This document shows positions 31,310 through 50,994 of a stretch of 64,000 nucleotides of DNA, one piece after another. The translations under genes and the position numbers were made by a program. Source of the stretch: a virus; IMG/VR virus record IMGVR_UViG_3300027759_000046, positions 62,001-126,000 of that record; one strand, given 5' to 3'. Under the pieces are notes generated by a model. That model worked only from the letters and a program-made list of their open reading frames with translations, was not told the origin of the DNA and searched no databases. Positions within the stretch are counted from its first letter, which is position 1; each line of letters opens with the position of its first letter.

Positions 31310-31674
31310 TATCTGCCGGCTTTGCTTATTTCAATTGCCTGTAATTGTTTAATTGCCTTTTCTCGGCTGGGATGAGTTCCCAATACTTTCTTGCCGCTCT
31401 TGTCAGTTACGACCCATTTGTTACCGCGTTTAAGTACCTTTTCATTTAGCGCTTGGTACTCGGAAAATCTTGCAACTCGATTCTCTGCTAAAGCCGGCTC
31501 CATGATCGGTTGCGAAGCTAGTTGGTTTACCGAAATCGATTCGACTTTATTTACTAATTCAGTTACTTTAGCTTTAATCATTTCAAGTTTTTCAATTTGA
31601 TCTTGAGTTAAAGATTCATTTGCTTCTTCTACGATAAACAAATATTCAATAAACGAGTCGATTTGATTTTCCAT
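31309..31674 (-). CDS. Late protein with possible targeting tag and SGKxxGTHxS motif
   Basis: I choose the ATG at 31674, one base after the upstream stop, over the frame start at 31698. The 121-residue protein starts MENQIDSFIEYLFIVEEANES. The C-terminal part, KWVVTDKSGKKVLGTHPSRE then KAIKQLQAIE, is a small motif found in many phage and virus structural proteins, from memory. Confidence 0.62.
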   Translation of the reverse strand: MENQIDSFIEYLFIVEEANESLTQDQIEKLEMIKAKVTELVNKVESISVNQLASQPIMEPALAENRVARFSEYQALNEKVLKRGNKWVVTDKSGKKVLGTHPSREKAIKQLQAIEISKAGR

Positions 31675-31675
31675 T

Positions 31676-32287
31676 TTAAATTGATATTTTTGAGGCAATC
31701 ACGAGGCCAAGTATAAGTTTAGTATACACAAGTTGAAAGTGATAATAGGTCAAAATGATTTGGTGTTCGTCTTTTGCCAGGCTAACTAATCCCTTTTTCA
31801 GAGTAAGTTGGCCTAACTGATTTAGCACTCTAACCATTTGAACTCGGTCTCTGATCATGCTAGATAAAATCTCAGCCATCGTTGAGTAACTTAAGCTAGT
31901 TCGGTTGTCCTGAATTAGAGCACACCAATCTTCAGCAGCTTCAACTGCATTACGTTTTACCAAAAGATCTTTTGATTTTAGACCCTTATCTAATATTTTT
32001 AAAATTTTGTCTAAGTCTTTTACCTTATCGGCAATTTCGTTGATCCAATACAATTCTTGTTCAAAAATTACTATTGCTATCTTGGTTTTATCCTTGCCAT
32101 AACCAAATTTAACCAGTTTTGGGTCTATTGGTCTTGCCTGAAAAAAGTCAGAGTCCTCATCGAATAAAAACGTTGGAGACTTAGGCATTTCACCAATCTC
32201 TATCTCGAACTCACCAAATGGGAAGTTCTGGAGAAACGGGTACTTTCGAGTAACCAGCTGAGATTGTTTACTGGGTGAAATTATCAT
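31676..32287 (-). CDS. Hypothetical protein
   Basis: The 203-residue protein is helical in its second half, with no recognised domain. It has a possible late promoter (AATAAATAAAC on the minus strand, 32301-32311) 14 bases upstream and is the first gene of a three-gene late unit. Confidence 0.55.
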   Translation of the reverse strand: MIISPSKQSQLVTRKYPFLQNFPFGEFEIEIGEMPKSPTFLFDEDSDFFQARPIDPKLVKFGYGKDKTKIAIVIFEQELYWINEIADKVKDLDKILKILDKGLKSKDLLVKRNAVEAAEDWCALIQDNRTSLSYSTMAEILSSMIRDRVQMVRVLNQLGQLTLKKGLVSLAKDEHQIILTYYHFQLVYTKLILGLVIASKISI

Positions 32288-32300
32288 CCTTTTGATTTTT

Positions 32301-32311
32301 GTTTATTTATT
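32301..32311 (-). promoter_or_regulatory. Late promoter
   Basis: AATAAATAAAC on the minus strand, 14 bases before the ATG at 32287. Confidence 0.55.
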
Positions 32312-32353
32312 TGGTACATTAAACCAAAATACTCTTTACTGATACAAGACAAT

Positions 32354-33811
32354 ATGACTCACAGCTTAGACCATCAAATTAAATCACTAGATCTTAAACA
32401 GAATGCAATTAAGATCCTAATTAACTCATTCTACGGTGCCTTCGGTAACCGATACTTCTACTTCCATAATAACGATATTGCCCAGTCAATCACTCTACAG
32501 GGCCAAGATCTTATTAAATTCTCAATTCGAGCAGTCAATCACTATTTTATTAACAAGTGGCATCTTGATACTGAGTTGCATGAAAAGCTTGGAATTGCCG
32601 GTAAAACGATTACGCCGATTACTAAAGAAGCTGCGATTTACACAGATACTGACTCAGTCTACGTATGTTTCGATTACGCAATTCGATCAGTCGACGGCCT
32701 AAAGCTATCAAATAAAGAATCGCTAGAGTTCTGTTTATCAATCAATCGTAATCGATTAAAAGATTATTTCGAGCAAGCATTTGAGAAGTACTCATCTCAT
32801 TTTAATACAGACAATCGTCAAAACTTTGAGCTTGAGAATCTATCTAAGTCCGGTATCTGGCTTGCCAAAAAGAAATACATTCTTAAAGTTTCCTATAAAG
32901 ATAACAAGCACGAGCAGCTGCTCGACAAAGAATCACTAATCATTAAAGGGCTTGAAGCAATTCAGGCATCATATCCAATCTGGGCAAGAAATCACCTGCA
33001 AGCTCTTTACACGTATCTATTAGATGTTGGCTACGACCTAGATCTAGAAGGTGACCTCATTCCAAAATTAACTGAGTTGAAATCCGAATGCGAAGCCTTA
33101 CCGGTTGAAGATATTGCTTTTAACTTCTCGGTTAGAGTTTATGAAAACTATCTAAAGAGTCTGGTGCCTCTTGTCTTAGAAACAGGTATGCCGATTTACG
33201 GCCGTGCCGTTTCATATCACAATCACCTAGTTAAAAAGAATAACAGTCAAAAATACGCTCTGATTAGAAGTGGTTCCAAGATTAAATTCTATTATGCTGC
33301 GCCTAACGAACATGAATTTGATATTTTCGCCTATGCGCCAGGTTCTTATCCAGAAGAGTTCGCAGTTCCATTAGATAGAGAGCAACAGTTCTTCCGACTA
33401 ATCGTTGAACCCATCAATAAATTATTGGTTGCAATGGGTTATCCTGAGCTTACTCCAAGCCTTACTCGTAAAGTCGAGATTATTAAGTCAAGAAGCCGCA
33501 AGGCCGAATTTACACCAGAAGAGATTTATCCACTATACTCAGTTAACTCTGAGACCCTAGACTTCGCTGAGATTCCTGAGAGCTGTCAAGAGTACGTTAG
33601 CGATCCAGATAAAAAGGTCCCAGCCGAAATATTCACTGTCTATATTTCAGCAATTTCCAAATTCGGTTTAAACACAGTAATTGTTCCTAAACACGAATTA
33701 CATAAGTATCGAGAACGTATTGCCAAGAAAAAAGGTCTTGAGATTGAAGTTCCAAAGCCTGAACCTAAACCTAAAAAAGCGAAAGCTGTAAAAGAAGTAA
33801 ATGAAGCGTGA
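32354..33811 (+). CDS. 43: DNA polymerase, family B, C-terminal half only (gp43-like, split gene)
   Basis: The 485-residue protein begins just before motif B, KILINSFYGAFGN (residues 20-32), and has motif C YTDTDS at 96-101, then KKKYILKV and a thumb region. It therefore covers about the last 40 percent of T4 gp43. The 3'-5' exonuclease, N-terminal domain and motif A are missing, and the sequence before it is a minus-strand gene. The N-terminal half must be encoded outside this window if the enzyme works. The C-terminal 40 residues are Lys/Pro/Glu-rich and may include a clamp-binding tail. It overlaps the primase gene by 11 bases. Confidence 0.9.
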   Translation: MTHSLDHQIKSLDLKQNAIKILINSFYGAFGNRYFYFHNNDIAQSITLQGQDLIKFSIRAVNHYFINKWHLDTELHEKLGIAGKTITPITKEAAIYTDTDSVYVCFDYAIRSVDGLKLSNKESLEFCLSINRNRLKDYFEQAFEKYSSHFNTDNRQNFELENLSKSGIWLAKKKYILKVSYKDNKHEQLLDKESLIIKGLEAIQASYPIWARNHLQALYTYLLDVGYDLDLEGDLIPKLTELKSECEALPVEDIAFNFSVRVYENYLKSLVPLVLETGMPIYGRAVSYHNHLVKKNNSQKYALIRSGSKIKFYYAAPNEHEFDIFAYAPGSYPEEFAVPLDREQQFFRLIVEPINKLLVAMGYPELTPSLTRKVEIIKSRSRKAEFTPEEIYPLYSVNSETLDFAEIPESCQEYVSDPDKKVPAEIFTVYISAISKFGLNTVIVPKHELHKYRERIAKKKGLEIEVPKPEPKPKKAKAVKEVNEA

Positions 33812-34922
33812 AGAAGTAATTTATTTCGTAGAGACTCTGCTCAGAAAGAGATTTCACGATAATCTCGAGAAGCAAAAGATCGAAGACGATACTGACCGTA
33901 AGATTAATTTTGCGTGTCCAATCTGTGGAGACTCTGAGAAAAAATCTTCAAAGAAACGTGGCAATCTCTATCTAGATACTGGCGCATACAAATGTTTTAA
34001 CGACGGCTGTATGGCGTACATGACTCTTGGCGAATTTGTTGCAAAGATGAGTCGCGAACACGGCATTATGTTGCCAAGTTTCGTGATGGATATTGAGTAC
34101 AAACCAACCAAGGTAAAGCGTGACGATAATCAATTAATTAGATTCTTAACGTCAGATACTGGTGAGCTTGTTAAAATCACCGATATCATAAATCGATTCG
34201 GCTTAAAGAGGTTAGATCAATTAGAAGGTCCATCTAGAGCGCTAGACTATCTTAAAGGCCGAGACCTTAACCTAATTGAAGATTTCGGAGATTGCCTCTA
34301 CACTGATTCGTCAGACAGTAGAGTCTATATTTTTAATTTCGATAAGAGATCCGGTCGTGTGTTGGGGTTCTCAATGCGTAGTCTAAATCCGGATGCCGAA
34401 CGTAAGTACATCATTAAGTCTTATACTGATCTCGCAAACGTATTTGTTCAAAAGAATATCTCAAAGCAATTGGTTGAGGATGCAAATTTCCTAAATAACT
34501 ATTTCAATATCTTAAACATTGATTTCGCAAAGCCTATCTTAATGGCTGAAGGCCAGTTTGACTCTCTGTTATTAGAGAATTGCATCGCAACCTCTGGTGT
34601 TAGTAAAGCCCGGAGCATTATGTCAAACCTTGGTGCAAAAAGCGGAGTCCGAATAATATTTGATAGGGACAAGGCAGGTCGTACCCAGATGATGCAGTTT
34701 ATTAAGCAAGGCTACTCAATCTTTCTCTGGAATAAAGCACTAAGCGAAATTAAATCAATGTGCGAGAGCGCATCAGAGTACATCAGTCTATCACATGTGA
34801 AAGATATTAATGATCTATTCTCATTTATCCGAAAAAAGAAACCTGATTATACTCTTGAAAAATTTAACTCTTGGATCAATTGTAATTTTAGTGAGACTGT
34901 CTATGATCTAGTCTACCTATAA
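33801..34922 (+). CDS. 61: DNA primase, gp61-like
   Basis: The 373-residue protein has an N-terminal zinc-binding domain with CPIC (39, 42) and KCFNDGC (65, 70). A TOPRIM region follows with ILMAEGQFDSLLL near 250 and IFDRDKAGRT near 287. T4 gp61 has 342 residues and the same layout and makes RNA primers with helicase gp41. It is coupled to the polymerase half upstream. Confidence 0.9.
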   Translation: MKREEVIYFVETLLRKRFHDNLEKQKIEDDTDRKINFACPICGDSEKKSSKKRGNLYLDTGAYKCFNDGCMAYMTLGEFVAKMSREHGIMLPSFVMDIEYKPTKVKRDDNQLIRFLTSDTGELVKITDIINRFGLKRLDQLEGPSRALDYLKGRDLNLIEDFGDCLYTDSSDSRVYIFNFDKRSGRVLGFSMRSLNPDAERKYIIKSYTDLANVFVQKNISKQLVEDANFLNNYFNILNIDFAKPILMAEGQFDSLLLENCIATSGVSKARSIMSNLGAKSGVRIIFDRDKAGRTQMMQFIKQGYSIFLWNKALSEIKSMCESASEYISLSHVKDINDLFSFIRKKKPDYTLEKFNSWINCNFSETVYDLVYL

Positions 34923-49018: not shown

Positions 49019-50994
49019 TATTTAATAGATAATTTTTCGTCTTTCGCCTTATACGTGATCACCAGATGATCTCCTTCCTTGATCTTATTGTCAATATAGG
49101 CTTCAGCAATGAGGTCTTCTACGTGTGACTGGATCACTCTCTTTAACGGCCTAGCTCCAAACTTAGGATCATATCCTTTTTCAATCAAGAAGTCCTTTGC
49201 CTGTTTAGTAACTTCAATTGTATACCCGTTTTCTTTAACTCGAGCAGCTAGATCAGCAATATCAATCTCAATGATTTTACGAATATCGTCTTTCTCAAGT
49301 GAATTAAAAATGATAATATCGTCTATTCGATTTATGAATTCTGGCGCAAACTGTTTGCTAATTGCCTTTTGTAAAACTTGATGAGCCAGATCTTTCTGCT
49401 TTTCAATTGAGTCAGCTGTTGCAAAGCCAATGCCTGCACCAAACTCTTGTAGACCCTTAACTCCAACGTTTGAAGTCATGATGATCACAGTATTTTTAAA
49501 ATCAATCTTACGCCCTAATCCATCAGTCATGTGGCCTTCGTCCAATACTTGCAATAGGGTATTAAAAATATCCGGGTGAGCTTTTTCAATCTCATCAAGT
49601 AGAATCACAGAATAGGGTTTACGTTTTACCTTCTCAGTCAACTGACCGCCATTCTCGTATCCAACGTATCCTGGAGGAGCTCCCAACATTTTACTTGCGG
49701 TAAACTTCTCTCCGTACTCTGACATGTCTATTCTGATCAAGGCATCTTCTGATGAGAACATGAATTTTGCTAACTGCTTAGCCAATTCAGTTTTACCAAC
49801 ACCGGTGGGGCCTAGGAACATGAATGTACCGATTGGTTTCTTTTTGGACTTTAGACCTGCTCGAGAACGTTGAATTGCTCGGGTTAATTTTCGGACCGCA
49901 TCGCCTTGGCCAATAACGCTCTGAGCTAACGTAGTTTCCATGTTAGCAACTTTCTCAAGTTCAGAACCTTGTAAACGAGTAACTGGAATACCTGTGATTG
50001 ATGCAACAACTGCTGCAATATCAGCCTCATTTACTTCAAGCCTATTAACTTTCAGAGACTCTTCCCAAAGTTTCTTCTCATCGGAAATTTCGTCAATTAC
50101 TTTTAGAGCTTCGTCTCTAAGCTTAGCAGCTAATTCGTATTGCTGTGATTTAACTGCTTTATCTTTTTTCTCAGTAACTTCGCCTAATTTTTCTTCAAGT
50201 TTCTTAATTGAATCCGGTACAACTACTCCATTAATGTGGACGTTTGACCCAGCTTCATCCATTAAGTCGATTGCTTTGTCTGGTAAAAACCTGTCCTGAA
50301 TGTATCGATCACTATAGGAAACGCATGCATCTAGTGCATCATCGCTATAGTGAACAGAGTGGTGATCCTCGTATTTGGATCTGATATTTTCCATGATTTG
50401 ACGAGTTTCGGCTGAGCTAGATGGATTTACCAAGATTTGTTGAAATCTACGATTAAGTGCTCCATCTTTTTCAAATGATCCACGGTACTCATCGACTGTT
50501 GTTGCACCAATGCATTGAATCTCTCCACGGCTAAGTGCTGGCTTCAAGATATTAGCCGCATCTAATGAACCGCTCGCAGAGCCAGCTCCAATTAGTGTAT
50601 GAATTTCGTCAATGAATAGAATAATATTTGGGTTCTGTTGAACCTCTTGAATGATTTGTTCCATGCGCTCTTCAAACTGACCTCGGTATTTTGTACCAGC
50701 GACCAAGTTTGCAAGCTCAAGAGAGATAATCTTCTTATCGAACAGGACTCTTGGACAAGTTCGGTCAATAATCATTTCAGCAAGACCTTCGACTATTGCA
50801 GTTTTACCAACACCAGGTTCACCAATTAAAAGCGGATTATTTTTCTTTCTACGTGCCAAGATTTGGCTGCATCTCTTTATCTCAGCAGATCGGCCAACGA
50901 CCGGATCAAGCTTGCCTTCGAACGCTAATTGCGTTAAGTCCTTACCGAAGGAATCCAACATTGGAGTTTTACTGTTTTGCGATTGTTTTGCCAT
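49018..50994 (-). CDS. ClpC/ClpA-type AAA+ unfoldase without N-domain
   Basis: The 658-residue protein has two AAA+ modules: GEPGVGKT (58-65) with LFIDEIH, and GPTGVGKT near 395 with LLDEIEKAHPD. A middle segment YELAAKLRDEAL is a UVR motif as in ClpC. The loop FGAGIGFATAD near residue 520 carries a [IL]GF tripeptide that binds ClpP. The N-terminal repeat domain that takes adaptors is missing (typical ClpC is about 820). No ClpP gene is seen here, so it may use host ClpP to redirect protein turnover. Confidence 0.92.
   Translation of the reverse strand: MAKQSQNSKTPMLDSFGKDLTQLAFEGKLDPVVGRSAEIKRCSQILARRKKNNPLLIGEPGVGKTAIVEGLAEMIIDRTCPRVLFDKKIISLELANLVAGTKYRGQFEERMEQIIQEVQQNPNIILFIDEIHTLIGAGSASGSLDAANILKPALSRGEIQCIGATTVDEYRGSFEKDGALNRRFQQILVNPSSSAETRQIMENIRSKYEDHHSVHYSDDALDACVSYSDRYIQDRFLPDKAIDLMDEAGSNVHINGVVVPDSIKKLEEKLGEVTEKKDKAVKSQQYELAAKLRDEALKVIDEISDEKKLWEESLKVNRLEVNEADIAAVVASITGIPVTRLQGSELEKVANMETTLAQSVIGQGDAVRKLTRAIQRSRAGLKSKKKPIGTFMFLGPTGVGKTELAKQLAKFMFSSEDALIRIDMSEYGEKFTASKMLGAPPGYVGYENGGQLTEKVKRKPYSVILLDEIEKAHPDIFNTLLQVLDEGHMTDGLGRKIDFKNTVIIMTSNVGVKGLQEFGAGIGFATADSIEKQKDLAHQVLQKAISKQFAPEFINRIDDIIIFNSLEKDDIRKIIEIDIADLAARVKENGYTIEVTKQAKDFLIEKGYDPKFGARPLKRVIQSHVEDLIAEAYIDNKIKEGDHLVITYKAKDEKLSIK

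What the first reader, a model, noticed from the sequence alone, without database searches (positions are those of the whole stretch)
32354..33811. DNA polymerase split, with only the C-terminal half here
The ORF starts about 20 residues before motif B and has motif C, but no exonuclease or motif A region exists anywhere in this window; upstream genes are on the other strand. Split gp43 is known from some Aeromonas T4-like phages, where the halves are close together. Here the missing half is at least 32 kb away on the left or 30 kb on the right, or the polymerase is joined by an unusual route.
Basis: partly seen in the sequence, partly recalled or inferred. Interest (0 to 1): 0.72.

Follow-up and report, generated by a model that had tools for sequence, protein, structure and literature searches.

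The report
Phage DNA polymerase in two genes
A large freshwater phage makes its DNA-copying enzyme as two separate proteins from genes about 45,000 bases apart, and its relatives do the same, so an essential enzyme appears to have been permanently divided into two subunits in a whole branch of large phages.

Summary
Window 32354-33811 (+) encodes only the C-terminal part of a T4-type family B DNA polymerase (motif B, motif C, thumb; 485 aa). The missing half is in the same 253-kb virus record, 44.9 kb upstream on the same strand (G000:48046-49437, 463 aa: exonuclease, motif A, first fingers helix). No full-length PolB and no PolA were found, and no Pol III alpha over cut-off. All 10 records that hold both halves show the same order and strand, 38-49 kb apart, so this is not an assembly break. 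Catalytic residues are invariant (46/46 N-halves, 19/19 C-halves). The break is the turn between the two fingers helices; laid end to end, the halves have the helix spacing of intact enzymes. Neither end carries intein sequence and Rfam shows no intron, so the halves most likely assemble non-covalently, as reported for Aeromonas phage gp43A/43B. The split marks a well-supported branch that includes Lak and other huge phages, where pieces can lie hundreds of kb apart; Lak and LR756500 add a split intein at motif C. Split gp43 is known; an old, lineage-wide, dispersed form was not found in the papers searched. New variant of a known kind.

The parts
32354..33811 (+). C-half of the family B DNA polymerase (485 aa). 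Its partner, the N-half, is outside the window at G000:48046-49437 (+), 44.9 kb upstream.
   Evidence: PF00136 145-450; N-half PF03104 + PF00136 17-145
32357..32446 (+). First helix of the C-half (residues 2-31), second helix of the fingers hairpin
   Evidence: AlphaFold2 model, pLDDT 50-70 in this stretch; sequence conserved in 19 of 19 homologs
32411..32449 (+). Motif B, K20 to N32 (KILINSFYGAFGN)
   Evidence: alignments; equivalent Lys is T4 residue 557
32639..32656 (+). Motif C, YTDTDS (residues 96-101), catalytic aspartates D98 and D100
   Evidence: invariant in 19 of 19 homologs
33473..33808 (+). Clade-specific C-terminal extension (residues 374-485) beyond the end of RB69/T4-like polymerases
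   Evidence: PHROGs matches stop at residue 362-363; extension present in near relatives, longer in some (485-542 aa in all)
32310..32328 (+). Conserved intergenic palindrome TTTGGT-ACATTAA-ACCAAA just upstream of the C-half, possible control element
   Evidence: present, one copy as a variant, in 8 of 10 homologs in which the stretch was covered; the 11th was given too short
33801..34922 (+). Primase-like gene overlapping the end of the C-half, probably co-transcribed
   Evidence: phrog_47 DNA primase E 6.4e-32; neighbour conserved in G001, G002, G007

Best explanation
This is the second subunit of a replicative family B DNA polymerase that exists as two polypeptides. The N-half (463 aa) carries the proofreading exonuclease, motif A and the first fingers helix. 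The C-half (485 aa) carries the second fingers helix with motif B, motif C and the thumb. Both are translated from their own start codons at loci 45 kb apart and assemble non-covalently: the palm is completed across the two chains and the fingers hairpin is formed by one helix from each chain. The active site is therefore composite, and neither half should polymerise DNA alone. Shown: both genes, their conservation, the split point, and the absence of a full-length polymerase in the record. Inferred: that they assemble, that the complex is the replicase, and that assembly is non-covalent.
For: Both halves in one record and in 10 of 10 records that hold both, same order and strand. Invariant catalytic residues, 46/46 and 19/19. 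Low dN/dS. Halves abut with spacing 43 against 37-44 in 21 intact enzymes other than T4. N-half model aligns to RB69 gp43 4-503 (Z 30.2, rmsd 3.9, 413 aligned) and the C-half model to the remainder up to 903 (Z 24.1, rmsd 4.3, 326 aligned). N-half ends and C-half begins in a long helix. No PolA in 12 records and no Pol III alpha over cut-off. N- and C-part trees both set the same split phages apart. N-half lies in a replisome gene cluster, C-half next to primase. Precedent: split gp43A/43B of phage 25 co-purify and are active (passage in PMC2988022).
Against: Nothing here shows assembly or activity. The C-half model is of middling confidence (pLDDT 78) and low (50-70) over its first 40 residues. 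Alignments of the C-half that include its first helix have rmsd 12-14, so its docking onto the N-half is not shown. The record has no end repeats and may be incomplete, so a further polymerase outside it is not strictly excluded.
Confidence: 0.88

Rival explanations
1. The halves are joined after all, by a split intein (protein trans-splicing) or by RNA trans-splicing through a fragmented intron.
For: Split inteins do join the two pieces of the C-part in Lak and LR756500, by inference from intein sequence at motif C. Nanoarchaeum equitans PolB is non-adjacent and trans-spliced (passage in PMC4104785).
Against: Neither half has an intein match in Pfam and end to end they already have the normal length. 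No Rfam intron near either half. Codon-like conservation in the C-half begins at its own ATG.
Confidence: 0.05
2. The C-half is a remnant, or a horizontally acquired fragment, and the virus uses another polymerase.
For: It looks like a truncated gene, and there are no biochemical data.
Against: Motifs invariant in 19 of 19 homologs, low dN/dS, complementary N-half in the same record, no other polymerase found.
Confidence: 0.02
3. Assembly break or chimera at 32.3 kb.
For: Metagenomic record without end repeats.
Against: 10 of 10 records with both halves agree (roughly seven lineages), with conserved gene order on both sides of each half.
Confidence: 0.01
4. The split also serves regulation: separate transcription of the halves lets the virus time or dose its replicase (this can hold together with the best explanation).
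For: The N-half sits in a replisome cluster and the C-half follows a conserved palindromic intergenic block and precedes primase and virion genes such as gp20.
Against: No expression data. Primase is itself a replication gene, so co-expression is as likely. In MA9V-2, henriette and L124 the halves are near each other. Neutral dispersal needs no such benefit.
Confidence: 0.12

Closest known systems
Split gp43A/gp43B of Aeromonas phages 44RR2.8t and 25
   Same: T4-type PolB in two genes, cut in the fingers before motif B, no intein at the cut; N parts of 498 aa in both, C part 391 aa in 44RR. Phage 25 halves co-purify and are active (passage in PMC2988022).
   Different: Their halves are adjacent (49 bp, or a homing endonuclease gene, between them). 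Here they are 44.9 kb apart. In both trees the Aeromonas splits lie with T4 and the intact enzymes, away from this branch.
Split PolB of Methanobacteriales and Nanoarchaeum equitans
   Same: Family B polymerase in two genes; in N. equitans the two parts are non-adjacent (passage in PMC4104785).
   Different: Archaeal; the N. equitans parts carry intein sequence for trans-splicing, these do not. Split sites were not compared here.
Split Pol III alpha of group 2.2 jumbo phages (Iyer et al. 2021, PMC7824862, passages read)
   Same: A replicative-type polymerase divided into two proteins from distant genes in a group that includes Lak.
   Different: Unrelated polymerase fold. In the passages shown the PolB of these phages is called classic and its split is not mentioned.
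Moraphages (Perez-Hernandez et al. 2025, PMC12619734; outline, passages and sections 11-12 read)
   Same: Freshwater jumbo phages of 200-307 kb whose shared VOGs include uvsW, ClpA, capsid, prohead protease, primase, portal and two separate 'DNA-directed DNA polymerase' VOGs. The window has gp23-, S77-protease-, uvsW- and ClpA-like, primase and portal genes.
   Different: Their sequences were not at hand, so membership is untested. The paper uses PolB as a single marker and 'split' occurs 0 times in it.

Membership tests
Family B DNA polymerase of T4 gp43 type | Exonuclease motifs and polymerase motifs A, B, C present (over the two chains) | tested here: met
   D98, E100, D199, Y289, D293, motif A D379 in 46/46 N-halves; motif B K20 and motif C D98, D100 in 19/19 C-halves; Pfam
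Family B DNA polymerase of T4 gp43 type | Fold of RB69/T4 gp43 | tested here: met
   N model Z 30.2, rmsd 3.9, 413 aligned; C model Z 24.1, rmsd 4.3, 326 aligned
Family B DNA polymerase of T4 gp43 type | C-terminal clamp-binding tail (recalled for RB69) and a gp45-type clamp in the genome | tested here: inconclusive
   The C-half runs on in a clade-specific extension; PF02916 found no clamp outside T4 among 8 records, which may be lack of sensitivity
Split gp43 (43A/43B kind) | Two ORFs that together make one complete polymerase, cut between fingers helices before motif B, without intein | tested here: met
Split gp43 (43A/43B kind) | Halves adjacent, parted by a mobile element or a short untranslated stretch | tested here: not met
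   44.9 kb apart; 38-49 kb in relatives
Split gp43 (43A/43B kind) | Halves co-purify and are active | not testable with these tools
   needs the bench
Intein-joined split polymerase (N. equitans kind) | Intein N- and C-parts at the broken ends | tested here: not met
   No intein match in Pfam on either half and no extra residues at the junction; the same library detects it in Lak and LR756500
Moraphages | Clusters with the 25 published genomes in MCP, TerL or PolB trees | not tested
   Their sequences are not in the collections searched; only gene content was compared

The most novel reading that the evidence does not exclude
A whole deep branch of large phages, including the window lineage, Lak and other huge phages, has an obligately multi-chain replicative PolB. 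One ancestral cut at the fingertip turned a single enzyme into two independent subunits, whose genes then dispersed around the genome, were re-shuffled and inverted and, in some members, were cut a second time by a split intein at motif C. The fingers hairpin, the part that closes on each incoming nucleotide, is in these phages a two-chain structure.
Probability: 0.75. Interest if true: 0.6.

Novelty: new variant of a known kind. Interest (0 to 1): 0.47.

Why it matters
The fingers of a family B polymerase open and close with every nucleotide (recalled), and here the two helices that do so belong to different proteins made from distant genes. That makes it directly testable how much covalent continuity a high-fidelity replicase needs. 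It also suggests that a gene-in-pieces state can become permanent and ancestral in a major phage lineage instead of staying a local by-product of a homing endonuclease. Practically, pipelines that take 'PolB' as one marker gene use half an enzyme in these phages, and each half can be mistaken for a truncated gene or an assembly fault.

Tried and rejected
Full-length polymerase elsewhere: not found. PolA: 0 of 12 records. Pol III alpha: one sub-threshold match in 12 records. Assembly break: rejected. Intron: no Rfam match in L021, L022, L114, L116, L117. T4-type clamp by PF02916: no match outside T4 among 8 records, uninformative. Sigma-70 promoter scan around the C-half: 8 sites against 14.5 expected, uninformative. 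The 15-base core of the upstream palindrome is not a repeated genome signal: 2 window matches with up to 2 mismatches, 1.25 expected. DNA-level match of 17 kb to phage records: none. I considered whether the split of this lineage is the same event as in Aeromonas phages; the N tree needs at least 2 changes of the split label and the C tree 3. MA9V-2, henriette, L182 and L138 are on long branches, so their exact places are unsure.

Rows dropped before counts: near-clade N-halves counted are G000 plus 45 of the 46 loci (L063, truncated, left out). C-halves counted are G000, 14 of the 18 loci (L016, L018, L019, L020, truncated, left out) and 4 from G006-G009 (L120-L123). Several are near-copies (L003, L004 and L015 of the window; L009-L014 and L017; G002-G005), so independent lineages are fewer, roughly seven among the ten records with both halves. 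The N tree used 9 near-clade rows, 9 of the 14 distant split loci, 20 of the 49 loci not called split, and 12 named phages. Spacing was measured in 22 of 23 intact references (L182 did not fit the motif pattern). In the C tree the intron-interrupted 43B of phage 25 entered as its last exon only, LR756501 entered with its insertion, and G013 was left out.

Full report
OBSERVATION. The ORF at window 32354..33811 (+) is real: 485 codons from ATG to stop, with the first 20 residues leading straight into motif B (KILINSFYG) and motif C (YTDTDS) at residues 96-101. Pfam places it on DNA_pol_B positions 145-450 of 453 (E 1.1e-16). The neighbouring upstream genes are on the minus strand.

THE MISSING HALF. 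The window is bases 62001-126000 of a 253,137-base virus record. That record has exactly two DNA_pol_B matches: one in this ORF and one at 49042-49407. The second is a 463-aa ORF at G000:48046-49437, same strand, 44.9 kb upstream. It carries the exonuclease domain (PF03104, E 8.2e-10) and the first part of the polymerase domain (PF00136 17-145), with motif A (DFASMYPNIQ, D379) and the fingers residues Arg440 and Lys444. Family A polymerase is absent from all 12 records searched, G000 among them, and Pol III alpha reaches no cut-off in any of them.

NOT AN ASSEMBLY BREAK. Ten of ten IMG/VR records that hold both halves (G000-G009) have them on one strand, N upstream of C, 38-49 kb apart by the positions of the profile matches. 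Four of them (270-271 kb) come from different metagenomes with different end points and give the same 43.2 kb, in two cases across the record ends if these are taken as circular; they are near-copies of one another, so I count roughly seven lineages. Four further contigs show only the N-half; in each, the contig left downstream of it (about 44, 44, 21 and 2 kb) is shorter than the largest distance seen. Gene order is conserved around the N-half (SSB, RNase H, gp31-like, sheath, polN, UvsX, gp41, gp47, gp46) and around the C-half (uvsW, two minus-strand genes, polC, primase, gp4-like, gp20 in G001 and G002; the shorter stretch of G007 shows polC with primase, gp4-like and the minus-strand genes). 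Several of these gene names are my reading of the translations.

BOTH HALVES ARE UNDER SELECTION. Ten catalytic or fingers residues are invariant in 46 of 46 near-clade N-halves, and the motif B and C residues checked in 19 of 19 C-halves. N-half ORFs all end within 457-466 aa. Pairwise dN/dS is well under 1, e.g. N 0.142/1.61 and C 0.146/1.83 for G000 against G002; the dS values are near saturation, so only indicative.

WHERE IT IS CUT. In 21 intact phage polymerases (T4 apart) the distance from the fingers Arg (G000 R440, T4 R479) to the motif-B Lys (C-half K20, T4 K557) is 37-44 residues; T4 has 78. With the two halves laid end to end it is 43, so nothing is missing and nothing has been added. 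Predicted structures agree: the N-half model (L064 protein, 95% identical to G000; pLDDT 82.9) ends in one long helix, 428-460, and the C-half model (pLDDT 78.1, low over its first 40 residues) starts with a helix, 2-31. The N-half model aligns to RB69 gp43 residues 4-503 (Z 30.2, rmsd 3.9, 413 aligned) and the C-half to the remainder, up to residue 903 (best Z 24.1, rmsd 4.3, 326 aligned). C-half rows that include its first helix start at RB69 543-547 and have rmsd 12-14, so that helix is not placed relative to the palm without its partner. In family B polymerases the Arg and Lys of the first fingers helix and the Lys of motif B contact the incoming nucleotide, and the aspartates of motifs A and C bind the metals (recalled from the RB69 literature, not tested here). 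The active site would therefore be shared between the chains.

HOW IT MOST LIKELY WORKS. Two proteins are made separately and fold together. Intein joining is not supported: neither half has intein sequence and no residues are left over at the junction. RNA splicing is not supported: Rfam finds nothing near either half and codon-like conservation at the C-half begins at its ATG. The precedent is gp43A and gp43B of Aeromonas phage 25, which co-purify and have polymerase activity according to the review passage I read (PMC2988022; the primary paper, J Mol Biol 2010, was not read).

HISTORY. A search with an alignment of N-halves brought 63 further viral loci. Sorted by profile, the 14 nearest (26-33% identical, L124-L137) all have an N-half that stops at the fingertip; of the other 49, 47 have both parts in one ORF and two run off their contig. 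In a maximum-likelihood tree of the N part (50 rows) 24 split rows stand on one side of a 100/99 branch: the window clade, LR756500, LR756501, LR756504, two Lak phages, nine of the new loci and Chryseobacterium phage MA9V-2. The intact enzymes stand on the other side, together with the split polymerases of Aeromonas 44RR and 25 and of Vibrio phage henriette 12B8. The C-part tree (41 rows) gives the same division, 100/100 for its 15 split rows. MA9V-2 and henriette are on long branches. The same cut has thus probably been made more than once, and once at the base of a large branch. An arrangement that looks intermediate is L124: polN, ribonucleotide reductase genes, small ORFs, then polC followed by UvsX and gp41. 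Cyanophage ACG-2014b has an intact gp43 shortly before UvsX and gp41. In the window virus the N-half has stayed near UvsX and gp41 and the C-half stands beside primase. My inference is that the C-half moved.

FURTHER DISPERSAL AND A SECOND CUT. In LR756504 the halves are 281 kb apart on opposite strands; in G016 and G013 about 86 and 99 kb, on opposite strands. In LR756500 and Lak the C-part is cut again exactly at motif C (after DTD; resuming with HN-S), with intein-splicing domain matches on both pieces (PF14890: 8e-11 and 1.3e-4 in Lak-B6; 5e-10 and 5.4e-4 in LR756500; the weaker ones are below Pfam's cut-off) and other ORFs between the pieces. G013 carries the N-part of what looks like the same intein, while its relative G016 has an uninterrupted C-half.

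WHAT IS KNOWN. Split gp43 is known in Aeromonas phages, split PolB in two groups of archaea, and a split Pol III alpha with distant genes in jumbo phages. PHROGs holds a 502-aa family that matches the N-half along nearly its whole length and a 382-aa family that matches most of the C-half, both named DNA polymerase (phrog_2062, phrog_1918), so the halves are in databases as separate families. The moraphage paper, probably about this kind of virus, lists two DNA-directed DNA polymerase VOGs among its shared genes and does not use the word split. Searches of open-access papers returned nothing that I could recognise as a report of dispersed PolB halves in large phages or of an intein in Lak PolB. 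I read passages of six papers, and two sections of the moraphage paper; most subscription journals are outside that library. The Jug phage preprint mentions polymerase genes split by endonuclease sequences (passage), which is the local kind.

VERDICT. The kind is known; the dispersal, the lineage-wide and evidently old state, and the link to Lak and other huge phages make it a new variant.

Noticed in passing
L116 (Lak-B6 513500-522500), L117 (Lak-A2 343500-349500), L114 (LR756500 249000-265000), L193 (G013): The PolB C-part of Lak phages, LR756500 and, by its N-part, G013 is broken at motif C (DTD^S) by a split intein with other ORFs between the pieces, so the Lak polymerase comes in three genes.
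   Followed up: partly
Lak-B6 508124-519534 against Lak-A2 122986-347206: In Lak-B6 the N and C pieces lie within about 11 kb on one strand, with the C pieces upstream; in Lak-A2 they are about 221 kb apart on opposite strands. A large rearrangement, or an assembly difference.
   Followed up: no
window 33473-33808 (+); L120-L123: The C-half of the window clade has a C-terminal extension of about 110-165 aa where other polymerases end; no Pfam or PHROGs match covers it.
   Followed up: partly
window 32310-32328: Conserved intergenic palindrome TTTGGTACATTAAACCAAA upstream of the C-half in 8 of 10 testable homologs (one a variant); its 15-base core occurs once exactly in the window.
   Followed up: partly
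L079 (Chryseobacterium phage MA9V-2): A cultured phage with split PolB, halves 3.5 kb apart with a TnpB-like gene among the genes between them; annotated as 'DNA polymerase II' and 'DNA polymerase family B'.
   Followed up: partly
L077 (Vibrio phage henriette 12B8): PolB split into 502 and 380 aa genes with one hypothetical gene between, both annotated simply as DNA polymerase.
   Followed up: partly
L118 (LR756501 706500-713500): The C-part of this 735-kb phage has a large insertion between motifs B and C, about where the Lak/LR756500 C-part is cut by its intein.
   Followed up: no
window 31312-31698 (-): A 129-aa gene with a sub-threshold match to a ribosome recycling factor family (PF12614, E 4e-5, 24.1 bits against a cut-off of 26.8).
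   Followed up: no
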